Part shown: piece by piece, positions 51,951-64,000 of the stretch | Position numbering within the stretch: position 1 is the stretch's first letter | Layout: every line of letters starts with the position of its first letter | NCBI RefSeq assembly: GCF_001584725.1 | Contig: NZ_CP014606.1 | Coordinates: forward strand, 496,001-560,000 | Direction of reading: 5' to 3' | DNA: 64,000 nt | Origin: an endosymbiont 'TC1' of Trimyema compressum | GTDB lineage: Bacteria; Bacillota; TC1 | The notes under the pieces: generated by a model | Database searches by the model: none | Seen by the model: the letters and a program-made list of their open reading frames with translations, nothing else | Told to the model about the DNA's origin: nothing | Position numbers and translations under genes: made by a program

Positions 51951-53010
51951 TTAGTTGGTGACTAGCTGATCTGTTTTTAAAATAGCTTCAAATAGTATTT
52001 TTTCTGTAATGTCAACAGGCTCATTATAAATAAAGGAATTTTCTGTACAAACAAAGGAAACTATATCTTTAAGATTTTCTTCAATATTTTTTGAAATTCC
52101 AATATCTTTTAAAGTCATTGGTAAGTTAGTTTTTGAATAGAAATCATAGATATCATTGGCCACAGAGGTATGTTCCTCATTATTAAGCATTAAAGCCACT
52201 AAGATACCAAAAGCAACTAATTCTCCATGAAGGCAATTTTTGGTTGCTTCTAATTCAACTAATCCATTATGCAGAGCGTGTGGACCGGCTAAGTGACAGG
52301 ATTCAAACCCCACACCACTTAAAAGAATAGTACTTTCAATCACTCTATTAAGAGCAGGTGTAATTTGAGCTTTTTTAAAATCATTAATAGCTTTTAAGCC
52401 ATCTTCTAAAATAATTTGAGTAGCCATTTGGGCTAGGAGGATTCCCGTAGTCGTTGCTTGTCCTCCGTGATAGCTTATAGAACCTTTTTAAGCCAAGACT
52501 TTGCTTCAAAGCCAGTTGCTAAAGCATCTGCCATCCCACTTATAAAGTATCTTATGGGACTTGCTAAGAGAATGTTGGTATCAACTAAAACAATTGCAGG
52601 GCTGTTTTTTTGAATTTCAAAACTTGTAATATGATTGTGTTTATCGTAAATGACTGCACAACCTGTACAAGGAGCATCTGTAGAAGCTACTGTAGGTACA
52701 ACTACTAAAGGGATATTTAAATGGTCTGCGAAAACTTTACCACAGTCAATTATTTTTCCACCACCCATTACAACTAAAGTGTTAAATTTTTTTCCAATGG
52801 CTATTAATCGATTTATTTCTAAATAGGTGTATTGTCCATTAAATGTTTCAACAGGGAAATGACATAAATCTTCTAGTGTTTTTTAAATCTAGGAATTGCG
52901 ATAAGAAAAGGTTCTCCTTCTAAGGTGTTAAGTATTTTAGGCAGTTCTTTTAAGGTATCTTCTCCCTGAATATATTTTCCAGAAAAGTGAATATGTTCAA
53001 TGTGTTCCAT
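51951..53010 (-). pseudogene. gldA: Glycerol dehydrogenase-like iron-containing alcohol dehydrogenase, frameshifted
   Basis: Joined on the minus strand from ATG 53010 the product is about 350 residues. NAD-binding VVMGGGKIIDCGKVFADH, the metal-site Asp region (FISGMADALATGFEAKSW) and the His region (HLAGPHALHNGL, then LHGELVAFG) identify the glycerol dehydrogenase group. A lost A near 52884 and a homopolymer change near 52490 split it into three frames. The enzyme would oxidise glycerol or a related polyol. It is otherwise well conserved, so inactivation looks recent. Confidence 0.82.
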
Positions 53011-56155: not shown

Positions 56156-56232
56156 GGCGACGTCGCCAAGTTGGCTAAGGCAGAGGTCTGCAAAACCTTC
56201 ATTCCCCGGTTCGAATCCGGGCGTCGCCTCCA
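56156..56232 (+). tRNA. tRNA-Cys (GCA)
   Basis: The acceptor arms GGCGACG and CGTCGCC pair fully, the anticodon loop CTGCAAA gives GCA, the T arm holds GGTTCGAATCC, and CCA is encoded at 56230-56232. All arms fold. Its 3' end is repeated in degenerate form at 59003-59039 and an integrase remnant lies just downstream on the minus strand, so it served as the attachment site of an integrative element. Confidence 0.95.
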
Positions 56233-56249
56233 CTATTACTAAAAGCTCT
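56213..56249 (+). repeat. attL-like direct repeat (tRNA-Cys 3' end)
   Basis: This 37-bp block starts in the T arm of tRNA-Cys and is repeated at 59003-59039 with six differences. All six are C here and T there. The pair brackets 2.8 kb with an integrase remnant at the tRNA side, the classic layout of a tRNA-integrated element. Confidence 0.8.
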
Positions 56250-56456
56250 ATAATAGGGGCTTTTTTATTTGTTTTTTCTCTGGACAAGCTCTGGACAAAT
56301 TCTAAAAAAAATGTTGATATCATTTTTTCAAATTGTTCATTTAATACATTTGCTGAAATTTCGATATTTTCTTTATATAGATGCCTGTAAATTTTTTGGA
56401 TTTGCTTAACAGTTGTATGCCCTACAATTGTTCTCTCACTGACTCCATTTTCCTTT
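56241..56456 (-). pseudogene. C-terminal remnant of a tyrosine integrase
   Basis: On the minus strand about 70 residues of a phage-type integrase end remain: NGVSERTIVGHTTVKQIQ with the GH of the catalytic box, then IYRHLYKENIEISANVLNEQ with the Tyr, and a tail containing VQSLSREKTNKK. The conserved order (GH followed by Tyr) and the position beside tRNA-Cys support the call. Everything upstream, including the first catalytic Arg, is missing; the frame stops at a 36-bp palindrome. Confidence 0.8.
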
Positions 56457-56487
56457 CTTCATTATACTATAGTATAATGAAGAAAGG
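56452..56487. repeat. 36-bp perfect palindrome
   Basis: CCTTTCTTCATTATACTA is followed directly by its exact reverse complement. The left half belongs to the integrase remnant, so the right half looks like an inverted copy. It contains TATAAT boxes in both directions. Confidence 0.95.
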
Positions 56488-56561
56488 GTAGACTCATAAT
56501 GGGTCTACGTAATTCTCATGAAAGAACCTTTTACAACTGGTAGAGATTGGGGTTCTTTTTT
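56486..56561 (+). ncRNA. Candidate small RNA
   Basis: Just after the rightward TATAAT in the palindrome (56473-56478), the sequence can form a hairpin (GTAGACTC with GGGTCTAC, 5-base loop), a short single-stranded link and a rho-independent terminator (AAGAACC with GGTTCTT, then TTTTT). No open frame is present. It could be a roughly 75-base RNA. No known family is recognised, and an old attenuator is an alternative. Confidence 0.4.
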
Positions 56562-56654
56562 ATTGATGTCATTTAATACCCATTTTCTGATGCACTGTAG
56601 CTTACCTGCGCATTTGTAAAACCTTCAGTTTGTACATAAGTATAGAGGATTGAC

Positions 56655-56861
56655 GGAAGCAGGCTCCCAACTATCCAGATTATTAATAAGTATTCTGGGA
56701 AAGCTGTTGGCTTGGGCTGTGGTAAAAAAGGCAATGAAACTAAGATTTATACTGTTAACCCAAATGATTCAACTAATCAAGATTGGATAGCTATTCCGAT
56801 TAGGCGGTTTACTAAGGAAAATATTGTGATAAGGGTTTTAAGAAGTAAAGAGATGTCATGA
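56655..56861 (+). pseudogene. Short remnant, possibly of a ricin-type lectin-like domain
   Basis: An open stretch of 68 codons without a good start contains IQIINKYSGKAVGLGCG and NDSTNQDWIAIPI, which resembles the repeat unit of beta-trefoil lectin domains (NKxSGK ... QW). A terminator (AGCTTAGGGGA with TTCCTCTAGGCT, then TTTTT) follows at about 56863-56895. The match is weak. Confidence 0.3.
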
Positions 56862-57029
56862 GCTTAGGGGATTGATTTCCTCTAGGCTTTTTTACAAGCC
56901 ACTCAGCTTGTAAATATTGATATGATCTAAATTGTTATGGCATAATAAAACGATAAAATTGTGATTCAAATAAACATGATTTGAAGGATGGGGAATGTGA
57001 AAAATAGAAAAATACATATGGAGGTAAGT

Positions 57030-58368
57030 ATGAAAAAAATTGATGATACAACCTTAATAGATTCAAATTGTATTATAAAAATAATGCCTAATAAATCTTT
57101 CATTAATGAAGATGTTGATATTACAATAAGTGGGTTGAAATGCAATCAAAAAGTGATTGTTCGCGCTGAGAGTAAAGATTATTATTGTATTAATTGTGGA
57201 ATGCTTGAACAGGGGAAAAATTCTTTGTGGGAATCATATGGTGTTTTTATTTCTGATGATAATGGAAATATTTTTTTAAAAAGCGCTATGCCAATTGATG
57301 GTACCTATAAGGATTGTAATTCAATGGGACTTTTTTATTCGATGAAAATAAAAAATGCGTAATAAAGAGTTGGCGAAAAATCTTTTAGATATTAGTGAAA
57401 ATCGAAGTTGTAATATTATTTTTACGGTTGAAATTGATGGAAAGGTATTAGCTTCTAAAATACATACTAGACAATTTTGTGATGATACAATAATAAGTAA
57501 GAGTATTGTTCAGAAAAATTTTGTTGGACGTTATTTTATTTCTGAAATTAAAAAACAAAGACCTGCAATTATTGTAGTTAGTGGAAGTGAAGGAAGAATT
57601 GAAAAGGCACAGGCTATTGCAGAAGTATTAGCTCAACAAGGGTATTCAACATTGGCTGTTTGCTATTTTGGAATGAATGACCACATCACCTAATCTGAAT
57701 TTAATCCCACTTAAAATTATTGAAAACTCTTTAGAATGGTTGAAAAATCAAGATACTGTTGATAATAAATGCATTGGAATTTATGGGCGTTCAAAGGGCG
57801 GAGAGTTAGCACTTATAGCTGCTTCTATTTTTCTAGTATCACTTGTGTGATTGCTAATATGCCTAGTTGTTATATTTATGAAGGGTTAATAAAAGGAAAG
57901 CCTTATCATCAATCATCATGGACATATCGAGGTTTAGAATTACCTTATATAAAATTTTCTTTTTTTATTTTGTTTAAAGCAATTATAAAAAAATATTATG
58001 AAAAAAGACTATATTAGAGAGATGTATCAGAATATGATTAAAAAATTTATTATAGAGGGTGCGAGTATAGAGGTAGAAAACATTAATGGTTCAATTTTGT
58101 TTTTATCTTCAGAGGAAGGTAAAATATGGCCTTCTTTCCTTCATTGCGAAATTGCAACTAAGAGGCTATCTGAAAAAAATTTAAGCATTATTATAAACAT
58201 CGTACTTATAAAAAAGCTGGACATATGCTTACATTACCTTATCAATCTATTATCAATGATAAAAAATGCAATGGATTTTTGCAGGAATGGGATAAGGCAT
58301 GCAATGATAGTTGGAATCAAACAATTGATTTTTTAGATAAATGGAGAGCAGGTCATATAAACAAATGA
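57030..58368 (+). pseudogene. Acyl-CoA thioesterase / BAAT-family protein, broken
   Basis: The N-terminal domain fits acyl-CoA thioesterase/BAAT (PNKSFINEDVDITISGLKC; FLKSAMPIDGTYKDCNSMGL). The C-terminal alpha/beta-hydrolase domain shows IIVVSGSEGRIEKAQAIAE, the nucleophile elbow IGIYGRSKGGELALIAAS and KKAGHMLTLPYQS with the likely catalytic His. ATG 57030 follows GGAGGTAAG. Frame changes occur near 57360, 57685, 57830, 58005 and 58185. The family hydrolyses acyl-CoA or transfers acyl groups to amino acids, including bile acid conjugation in animals; the bacterial substrates are mostly unknown. It lies inside the tRNA-Cys element. Confidence 0.78.
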
Positions 58369-58516
58369 AGATTTAATTGGAAGAAATGGGTTTTTATTGC
58401 ATAAATTATAATTTATAATATATAATTAAAAAAACATAAAAACTACAGTCTAAATATTTAATAAGAAAGAAGATCAAATATTACATGAGGGAGACAAGGC
58501 ACAATAAGTTAGAAAG

Positions 58517-58639
58517 CGTTATACTTTCAAAGGCTGGAATACAGCAAAAGATGGAAGTGGAGAAAACTGGAAATTCAATAAAACAACAATGCCTGATCAT
58601 AATGTAACACTATATGCCCAATGGCAATGTTGGTGGTAA
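58517..58639 (+). pseudogene. Isolated InlB-type repeat remnant
   Basis: About 40 codons encode one more Flg_new/InlB B repeat ([18 protein letters not shown] and MPDHNVTLYAQW), ending in TAA. No signal peptide, anchor or start is near. It is the third piece of the same repeat in this window. Confidence 0.7.
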
Positions 58640-59002
58640 CTGATAAATAAAGTTATTTACAAAAAGAATAATTAATGTTACTATCATTATAATGCTAACA
58701 ACCTTTTAATTTTTTTCATTTAATGTAAAATTCCCTAGGCAATGAGCTTAGGGAGTTTTGCTATATAAAAATATCAAGGTAGCAAAAAAACGCCTTGATA
58801 AAAGTTAGGGGTCATCACATAATTTCTAGCTCTTATCTTGTAAAATGCCCATTCATGAAGAGGGCATTTTACTTTCAAATTATTTTTCCTTCAATAATAT
58901 ACACTTCAAGTCAATTACAAAATTAGGGGTATTTGATATTATATGTTTTAACAATTCCAAAGTGTTTAAGTGCGATGAAATACCTTAAAATTGTTATTTT
59001 AA
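58640..59002. other. Non-coding stretch with three hairpins
   Basis: No gene is seen. It holds a strong terminator at 58727-58759, a short hairpin at about 58768-58797 (TATCAAGG with CCTTGATA) and a second terminator-like hairpin at 58840-58872 (GTAAAATGCCC with GGGCATTTTAC). Confidence 0.6.
58727..58759 (+). terminator. Strong terminator, twin of the half-site at IS copy 1
   Basis: AAAATTCCCTAGGC pairs with GCTTAGGGAGTTTT (14 bp with two wobbles) around the loop AATGA. The 3' arm is repeated right of IS copy 1 at 48630. Confidence 0.85.
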
Positions 59003-59039
59003 GAATCTGGGTGTTGTCTTCACTATTACTAAAAGTTCT
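59003..59039 (+). repeat. attR-like degenerate direct repeat of tRNA-Cys 3' end
   Basis: GAATCTGGGTGTTGTCTTC and the following CACTATTACTAAAAG match 56213-56249 at 31 of 37 positions. Each difference is C-to-T. It marks the far end of the integrated element. Confidence 0.8.
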
Positions 59040-59529
59040 TCAATTGCTATAATGGTCTGTCTTTTTACACCGATTCGTAATAGAAAATATAAGAAATATT
59101 TAAAATGTTATCCCTGTATTAATAAGAAAATAGGATATAAAACAGAAGTTAACAAGGGAATTCTTCATAGACTATCCAATGCAGATGAAAAAATGCGATT
59201 TACAGATGGCGCCTAATACTAATATTGATTTGCCTATTTTTGGGAATCAAAAGACTATAGAGCTACGTAATTATAAACTTCAGGTTATTTTAGAATCAGA
59301 TGAAAAATTGGAAGAGGGGTTATCTTTTACTGTTGCTTCTAAGACTTAAAAAATGATTGAGGATGCTGACCAGTCAATACAAAATAGTTAAAAAATATAT
59401 TTACTAACAATAAAAGATTATTTATTTTCTTAAATTAAATAATTGAAGCAAAAGTGAAAACATAAAAAAAGAAAGGCTATTATAAATAACGAAACTATTG
59501 AAATAATGGCTCCAGTATTTGCAAGCTAC
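59040..59529 (+). other. Remnant region left of IS copy 2
   Basis: Short open pieces can be read (for example NKGILHRLSNADEKMRFTDG near 59155-59213 and NYKLQVILESDEKLEEG near 59270-59320, ending at TAA), probably decayed coding sequence. I recognise no family and no start. Confidence 0.4.
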
Positions 59530-59566
59530 TGGAAGAATGTCAATAGAGTAGATAGAAAAAGTGAAA

Positions 59567-60511
59567 TTAAGTTTTAATAGAAGTGAAAAAATAGTCTTCT
59601 TTGGAATTAGGAGAAAGAATGTTATTAGCAGAGTGGGGACGTATAGGGGGTTGTAGAAGCCCTCAATGTGTTCAAAGCAGGAAAGCTTAATTTGAGCAAA
59701 GGAAGAAAAAGACCTACGAAGAATTTCTTCTTTTTTCATATATTTAAAAAGGACTCAACGACAGCATTGTCCCAAGGATGAGAAAGCTTAGAAAAAGATT
59801 GAATGATACCAAAAGAATCAAGGAGCTTTCTAAAGATAAAAGAAGTATATTAGGAACCTCTGTCAGAATGAAAAATAAGAGAAGTAGAAGGTTTTTGAGA
59901 ATAAAAGGCTTTGATAAAAGTATCCTTAACAAGAGAAGTATCAATTTTAAGAGAGAGCTTCCAAGCAATAATTTTACGAGAAAATAAATCCATAATAACA
60001 CAGAGATAAGCAAAAGAGGCATTTAAATTAATATAGGTAATGTCACTAGCCCAGACTTGATTGGGCTGAGGAACATTAAAATTTTGATTTAGGTAGTTAG
60101 GGCAATCAAAATTGGGAATAGACCTCGGATGAATAAACCGAAGTTTGATAGTAGGCATTTTAGGAAGATTCATGTCAGTCATCAGGCGGCTCGCTCTACC
60201 AATACTGATGTTGATGCCATAGTCATAGGAAAGAAGAGCCTTAATCTTAGATGGGCCAATACGTCTCTTAGTAAGATGACAAATCTCCGAGAATAAGCTG
60301 ACGGAGTTTTTAATTCTCAATAGTTCTAGGAGAAAGTTTTTCCGAAAAGTATTTGTAATAGGAGCTGCGGTTCACTTTAAGGACATGACAAAGAAAAGAG
60401 ATAGCGTGCTGAAAACGAAGGGTATGAACAGCCATTAATCTTTGTCTGAGTGAGGCGTGAATATGGCAATTGCTTTTTTTAAAATGATATTTTCCTCCTA
60501 GAGTCGAGCAT
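59567..60511 (-). pseudogene. IS3-family transposase OrfB, copy 2, broken
   Basis: It has the same integrase core as copy 1 with the same frame changes and the same TAA after HSDRGS (about 59850). The extra A near 60481 also breaks the region after the OrfA/OrfB overlap (a TAA follows the KISF segment), so copy 2 carries one lesion more than copy 1. Confidence 0.83.
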
Positions 60512-60716
60512 TACGCTTTTGAAGATCCTTAATCTGCTTAGCGGTTAGAATAGTATCATCATCAATTCTAACCTGAGAATAAAGTTTAATCCACTTGTGT
60601 AAAGCAGACATGGAGACACCATATTCTTTAGAAAGTTGGGATTGAGTTTTACCGTTTTGGTGTAAATTAACAATACTTTTTTTAAATTCTTCATCGTATT
60701 TCTTGTAATTATTCAT
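60498..60716 (-). CDS. IS3-family transposase OrfA, copy 2
   Basis: The 72-residue helix-turn-helix protein is identical to OrfA of copy 1 and is intact. Alone it can bind the element's ends but cannot move it. Confidence 0.83.
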   Translation of the reverse strand: MNNYKKYDEEFKKSIVNLHQNGKTQSQLSKEYGVSMSALHKWIKLYSQVRIDDDTILTAKQIKDLQKRNARL

Positions 60717-60794
60717 AATTTTATCCTTTCTTATGTGTCTACTTATTTAAAACATGTTTCACTTTTTCCTGTCTACTTTTTTAGTATATGTCCA

Positions 60795-62826: not shown

Positions 62827-64000
62827 ATGTATGGTTATATGGGTAATGTATTAAGAGTTAATTTGACAAAAGGAACAACAGAAGTTGAAGCACTTAATAT
62901 GGAGGATGCAAAAAAACTATATTGGGTCTAGAGGTTTAGGTGTTAAAACCTATATGGATGAAGTGAATCCTAAGATAGACGCATTAAGTGAAGAGAATAA
63001 GGTGATGATTGCAACAGGACCTTTAACAGGAACTTTTGCGCCAACAGGTGGTCGCTATATGGTTATTACAAAATCACCATTGACTGAAAGAATTGGAATT
63101 GCTAACCCTGGTGGTTATTTTGGTACACAGTTAAAAAAGCTGGAATTGATATGGTTATTATTGAAGGGAAGGCTTCAAAGCTAACATATCTTTTGATAGA
63201 GGAAAATCGTATTGAGTTAAAAGGTGCTAGCCATTTCTGGAGTAAGGTTCTGTCTGAAACTACTAAAATATTAGAAGAGGAAACTTCTTCTAAACATAAA
63301 ATTTTAGCTATTGGACCTGCTGGAGAAAACTTATCACCACAATGGCAGCTGTAATGAATGATATTGATAGAGCTGCCGGTAGAGGTGGACTATGTGTTGT
63401 TCTCGGCTTTAAAAACTTAAAAGCCATTGTAGCAAGAGGCAATAAAGAAGTGCCTCTTCCGGATAAAAATGCCTATTTAAAAACAGTAAAAGAGAAAGTT
63501 GAAAAACTTAAGAATGATCCAGTTGGTGGACAAGGTCTTCCGCTATATGGGACAGCAGTACTTGTAAATATTATTAATGAGCATGGCATTCATCCAAATA
63601 AAAATTTTCAAGATGGTTATTTAGACCCTGACACTATTGATAAAGTAAGTGGCGAAACACTAACTAAAGATTATTTAACTAGAAAAACGAATTGTGCATC
63701 ATGTCCCATTGGATGTGGCAGAGAGGTTAAGTTAGATGATGGACGTATTGTAGGGGGACCTTAGTATGAAACAATCTGGTCTTTTGGTGCAGATTGTTAT
63801 AATTTTGATTTGAATAATATTAATGAAGCTAATGAACTCTGTAATGAATATGGTTTAGATACAATTTCTGCTGGAGCAACAATAGCAGCAGCTATGGAAA
63901 TGTATGAGAAGGGCTATATTAAAGATAACGATATTAAAGCAGATGGACTTTCTTTAAAGCGGGGAGATGCTCTGATGCTATTTTGCAGTGGCTACATAAA
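62827..64000 (+). pseudogene. Aldehyde:ferredoxin oxidoreductase, 5' part, broken (runs off window)
   Basis: The N-terminus MYGYMGNVLRVNLTKGTTEV and MIATGPLTGTFAPTGGRYMV, then AAVMNDIDRAAGRGG, are typical of tungsten/molybdopterin aldehyde:ferredoxin oxidoreductases. Cys residues CASCPIGCG (about 63697-63720) match the first part of the 4Fe-4S/pterin site. Frame changes occur near 62910, 63140 and 63338, a TAG stands at 63762-63764 within GGP-stop-YETIWSFGAD (Glu or Gln expected), and a CT insertion near 63972 shifts the frame again. The gene continues beyond the window. It would have oxidised aldehydes to acids with ferredoxin. Confidence 0.82.

What the first reader, a model, noticed from the sequence alone, without database searches (positions are those of the whole stretch)
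56213..59039. Integrative-element remnant at tRNA-Cys with an att repeat that differs only by C-to-T
The 37 bases at the tRNA 3' end recur at 59003-59039 with six differences, each C at the tRNA and T in the far copy, while all G positions are kept. An integrase end lies beside the tRNA. This defines a 2.8 kb decayed element carrying an acyl-CoA thioesterase/BAAT gene and an adhesin repeat. The one-sided change could reflect strand-biased deamination after loss of selection, or chance.
Basis: partly seen in the sequence, partly recalled or inferred. Interest (0 to 1): 0.6.

Follow-up and report, generated by a model that had tools for sequence, protein, structure and literature searches.

The report
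Decayed mobile element at tRNA-Cys gene
A 2.8-kb stretch next to a cysteine tRNA gene is the worn-down remains of a mobile DNA element that once inserted there, one of at least seven such relics at tRNA genes in this small genome; it is ordinary, and its C-to-T differences need no special mechanism.

Summary
The last 20 bases of tRNA-Cys plus 17 bases beyond it (56213-56249) recur at 59003-59039 with 31/37 identity and six differences, all C to T. The repeat exceeds chance: score 44 against a shuffle maximum of 28; no other place in the window exceeds 21/37. An antiparallel C-terminal remnant of a tyrosine integrase (56237-56452) abuts the tRNA. The interval also holds a ricin-lectin-type fragment, a frameshifted BAAT/acyl-CoA-thioesterase-like pseudogene and a Listeria-Bacteroides-repeat adhesin fragment. 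This is the standard anatomy of an integrative island at a tRNA 3' end, decayed. In the same 1.62-Mb genome, 7 of 18 tRNA loci carry an antiparallel integrase remnant at the 3' end; at tRNA-Leu(gag) two integrases lie in tandem, separated by a second displaced tRNA fragment 9.35 kb away. The C-to-T one-sidedness is weak evidence of anything special: the + strand is G-rich (skew +0.2, leading-strand-like), the local C>T:G>A rate ratio is about 1.4, so six of six GC-to-AT changes falling on C has p of about 0.11 (0.02 to 0.0006 under harsher nulls), and neither the rest of the element nor the second att pair shows such a bias. Verdict: a new but ordinary member of a known kind.

The parts
56156..56232 (+). 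tRNA-Cys(gca), intact, CCA encoded: the integration target, regenerated by the element
   Evidence: ARAGORN; Rfam RF00005 61 bits
56213..56249 (+). tRNA-side att copy (attL): last 20 nt of the tRNA plus 17 nt, running into the left arm of the tRNA terminator (aaaagctc...ggggcttttt)
56237..56452 (-). C-terminal remnant of a tyrosine integrase (box II-like GHTTVKQIQKIYRHL), pointing at the tRNA 3' end; truncated at a 36-bp palindrome
   Evidence: 63% over 19 aa to the integrase remnant at C1:353 kb; phrog_1 integrase, E 0.045
56452..56487 (.). perfect 36-bp palindrome at the point where the integrase is cut off; unique in the genome
56626..56897 (+). C-terminal remnant of a RicinB-lectin-2 domain plus terminator; 80% identical to a copy in the tRNA-Arg(cct) element
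56988..58336 (+). BAAT / acyl-CoA thioester hydrolase-like pseudogene (PF04775 then PF08840) split over several frames; the only PF04775 match in this genome and 30 relatives
58391..58478 (+). leader region of the surface-protein family; directly follows the ricin block (22 bp apart) in the tRNA-Arg(cct) paralogue, so the thioesterase module lies between two blocks that are contiguous there
58502..58640 (+). Listeria-Bacteroides repeat (PF09479) fragment, end of a surface adhesin pseudogene
58641..58900 (+). multicopy hairpin/terminator block that follows surface-protein genes elsewhere in the genome
59003..59039 (+). displaced tRNA-Cys 3' fragment (attR), six C-to-T differences from attL

Best explanation
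A tyrosine-integrase element (an ICE, island or prophage carrying cell-surface cargo) once integrated at the 3' end of tRNA-Cys. Recombination within the T-loop-to-3'-end identity block regenerated an intact tRNA on one side (attL) and left the original 3' fragment at the other (attR). Most of the element, including all but the last ~70 codons of the integrase, was then lost by deletion. The remaining lectin, thioesterase and adhesin genes became pseudogenes. The attR copy, no longer selected, drifted under AT-biased, leading-strand-biased mutation, while the tRNA copy was kept by selection. Shown: the repeat, the integrase remnant and its orientation, the gene fragments, and parallel relics at other tRNAs. 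Inferred: the order of events, the type of element, and the mutational cause.
For: att repeat far above chance and of the right kind: 3' fragment, downstream, same orientation as the tRNA. Antiparallel integrase remnant directly beside the tRNA. The same arrangement at six other tRNA loci of this genome: Leu(tag), Arg(tct), Leu(taa), Leu(gag), Arg(cct), Met, against a chance probability of about 1e-13. A second displaced fragment at tRNA-Leu(gag), 9.35 kb away and followed at once by a second integrase remnant, with a VirD4/T4SS coupling-protein gene inside that element. Shared adhesin and ricin blocks between the window element and other tRNA loci. BAAT gene absent from 30 relatives, i.e. imported cargo. 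GC skew about +0.2 across the whole window; leading-strand G excess, generally attributed to C deamination, is the common bacterial pattern (PMC3269012).
Against: The integrase remnant is short and gives no Pfam hit; its identity rests on motif, position, a weak PHROG match (E 0.045) and one paralogue. No empty site or complete copy of the element was found; the nearest sequenced relatives are a different genus. The interval may hold later insertions (the surface-protein blocks are multicopy in the genome), so not everything between the repeats need have arrived with the element.
Confidence: 0.88

Rival explanations
1. The six C-to-T changes record a special strand-specific C deamination acting on the displaced att copy (for instance long exposure as single strand, or an enzyme), beyond ordinary mutation.
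For: Six of six changes are C>T, including all three CpG cytosines; under the spectrum measured in the genome's own repeats the chance is 0.0006 for all changes or 0.024 for transitions only.
Against: Given that changes are GC-to-AT transitions, the chance is 0.11-0.12 with the measured 1.4-fold leading-strand bias. Unpolarised paralogue-to-window differences in the rest of the element are not C>T biased (G>A 87, C>T 39). The tRNA-Leu(gag) att pair shows mixed changes. The pattern was picked by eye from 64 kb.
Confidence: 0.05
2. The far copy is a decayed tRNA-Cys gene duplicate or stray tRNA fragment, not an att site.
For: Under a very permissive scoring some D-arm-like similarity upstream appears (8% of background positions score as well).
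Against: Under two other scorings the upstream similarity is at background. The repeat runs 17 bases past the tRNA, begins at the T-loop, and has an integrase remnant in the expected place.
Confidence: 0.05
3. Two or more elements were stacked at tRNA-Cys, and 59003-59039 is a middle att; the surface-protein remnant (WxLIP_HBD, 59179-59349) beyond it belongs to a second element. This is a variant of the best explanation and can be true together with it.
For: The tRNA-Leu(gag) locus is a tandem of that sort, and a WxLIP_HBD protein lies beyond its second integrase. The sequence beyond the far copy in the window is also remnant DNA, followed by an IS3-family element.
Against: No third copy of the repeat and no second integrase remnant was found downstream in the window.
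Confidence: 0.3

Closest known systems
Genomic islands in tRNA genes mapped by displaced tRNA fragments (Islander, PMC4383910)
   Same: Intact tRNA, downstream 3' fragment in the same orientation, tyrosine integrase beside the tRNA; tandem arrays are known (125 tandems of two or more among 3919 islands).
   Different: The integrase is truncated and the interval is only 2.8 kb, so it is a relic, not an intact island.
Integrative and conjugative elements (ICEs) and prophages integrated by tyrosine integrases
   Same: Integration mode and site; a sister relic at tRNA-Leu(gag) keeps part of a VirD4/T4SS-DNA_transf coupling protein.
   Different: In the window itself no conjugation or phage structural gene was identified.

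Membership tests
tRNA-integrated genomic island (Islander criteria) | Intact tRNA gene with a cognate fragment on the same replicon | tested here: met
tRNA-integrated genomic island (Islander criteria) | 3' fragment lies downstream of and in the same orientation as the tRNA | tested here: met
tRNA-integrated genomic island (Islander criteria) | Integrase gene within the interval | tested here: inconclusive
   Only the C-terminal ~70 residues remain, with a box II-like motif; no Pfam hit
tRNA-integrated genomic island | Empty attB in a related strain | not testable with these tools
   No genome of the same genus; tRNA-Cys in the nearest relatives has different flanks
Integrative and conjugative element | Conjugation genes (relaxase, coupling protein, T4SS) in the element | tested here: not met
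   None among the window ORFs scanned; a coupling-protein remnant is present only in the sister relic at tRNA-Leu(gag)
BAAT / acyl-CoA thioester hydrolase | PF04775 N-terminal and PF08840 C-terminal domains in one open frame | tested here: not met
   Both domains detected, but split over several frames: a pseudogene

The most novel reading that the evidence does not exclude
Displaced att copies left by integrated elements accumulate C-to-T on one strand faster than neighbouring DNA, so that the direction and number of changes could date integrations.
Probability: 0.03. Interest if true: 0.5.

Novelty: new member of a known kind. Interest (0 to 1): 0.17.

Why it matters
It adds one precisely bounded relic to a genome in which more than a third of the tRNA loci were once occupied by integrase elements and an IS3-family element has spread in near-identical copies. 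That illustrates how a small genome takes up and sheds mobile DNA. It does not reveal a new mechanism.

Tried and rejected
Searched IMG/VR for the att sequence in C or T form: none. Searched IMG/VR, phages and plasmids for relatives of the integrase fragment, and IMG/VR for the BAAT fragment: nothing significant. Looked for a full decayed tRNA upstream of the far copy: not supported. Looked for a third att copy or second integrase downstream: none. Tried IS3 copies as a mutation-spectrum yardstick: they are nearly identical, so useless for that. Looked for the DUF948-like flanking protein in GTDB contigs to find an empty site: no relative found.

Full report
Observation. The tRNA-Cys(gca) gene occupies 56156-56232 on the + strand (Rfam). 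Its last 20 bases and the 17 bases after it recur at 59003-59039, with 31 of 37 positions identical and six differences, each C at the tRNA and T in the far copy. The alignment score is 44, against at most 28 in dinucleotide-preserving shuffles of the downstream DNA. The next best places in the window match at 21 of 37, and the far copy is the only other match to the tRNA region in the whole genome. The repeat is real.

Anatomy. Between the repeats, in order: the C-terminal ~70 residues of a tyrosine integrase on the - strand, with the box II-like GHTTVKQIQKIYRHL (56237-56452), cut off at a perfect 36-bp palindrome that occurs once in the genome; the end of a ricin-type lectin domain with its terminator (56626-56897); a BAAT/acyl-CoA-thioesterase-like gene broken into several frames (56988-58336); a leader-like block (58391-58478); a Listeria-Bacteroides repeat fragment (58502-58640); and a multicopy terminator block. 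In the paralogous locus at C1:1311 kb, beside tRNA-Arg(cct), the ricin block and the leader block are 22 bp apart. The thioesterase module is therefore an insertion in the window copy or a loss in the other. PF04775 occurs nowhere else in this genome or in 30 relatives searched, so it was probably imported.

The genome. The window is C1:496001-560000 of a 1.62-Mb, two-contig genome whose genus has no other member in the sets searched; its RpoC is at best 68% identical to named records, which are mostly clostridial Bacillota. The 34 tRNA genes found fall into 18 loci. Seven of these carry a tyrosine-integrase remnant within 1 kb of the tRNA 3' end, antiparallel to the tRNA: Leu(tag), Cys, Arg(tct), Leu(taa), Leu(gag), Arg(cct), Met. 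With 11 integrase places in the genome, chance would give this with a probability of about 1e-13. A displaced 3' fragment was detected at two of the 18 loci: the window and tRNA-Leu(gag). The Leu(gag) fragment lies 9.35 kb from the tRNA and is followed at once by a second integrase remnant, so two elements were stacked there. The first keeps part of a VirD4/T4SS coupling protein and a ricin-lectin protein; a WxLIP host-binding-domain protein lies beyond the second integrase. The arrangement and its use as a marker of islands are well known (Islander, PMC4383910; tRNA fragments from integration, PMC9897764).

The C-to-T pattern. The + strand has a steady GC skew of about +0.2 through the window, as expected for a leading strand, where C deamination bias is the usual account (PMC3269012). 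Two estimates of the C>T to G>A per-site ratio agree at about 1.4: base composition of the decayed interval (assuming equilibrium), and changes against the consensus of repeated blocks (20/189 against 24/313). With that ratio, six of six GC-to-AT transitions falling on C has a probability of 0.11-0.12. Without any strand bias (hypergeometric) it is 0.034. Against the full spectrum of the diverged repeats it is 0.024 (transitions) or 0.0006 (all changes), but that spectrum comes from old, partly coding copies with many multiple hits. The repeat blocks themselves show no C>T excess in the window copy (unpolarised differences G>A 87, C>T 39), and the second att pair has mixed changes. Since the pattern was noticed by eye in 64 kb, I treat it as ordinary drift plus luck. 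That no A or T in the copy changed fits AT-biased mutation.

What could not be tested. No genome of the same genus was available, so neither the empty site nor the full element could be seen. The nearest family members have tRNA-Cys in other surroundings. Whether the element was an ICE, an island or a prophage remains open.

Verdict. This is an ordinary relic, one of a series in this genome.

Noticed in passing
G000:C1, seven tRNA loci (L075, L076, L081, L082, L083, L086, L089): Antiparallel tyrosine-integrase remnants at the 3' ends of 7 of 18 tRNA loci, several followed by surface-protein genes with Listeria-Bacteroides repeats, leucine-rich repeats or an LPKTG-like anchor (the last two read by eye): surface-protein islands parked at tRNAs.
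   Followed up: partly
window 59530-60760; copies such as C1:279054, 649214, 423714, 1050007: An IS3-family element (rve integrase core) in about 30 full or nearly full copies at an identity that rounds to 100% across the genome: a recent burst. Several copies lie inside or beside the tRNA-linked relics.
   Followed up: partly
window 56452-56487: Perfect 36-bp palindrome exactly where the integrase remnant is cut off, followed by more hairpins; unique in the genome. Function unknown.
   Followed up: partly
window 59179-59349: Fragment of a WxL-interacting-protein host-binding domain just beyond the far att copy, related to a protein beyond the second integrase at tRNA-Leu(gag).
   Followed up: partly
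window 51951-52768 and 62885-64000: Neighbouring genes that look like glycerol dehydrogenase and aldehyde ferredoxin oxidoreductase (named by eye) appear split over several frames, while 1-46 kb has long intact genes: the 46-64 kb part looks like a decaying stretch.
   Followed up: no
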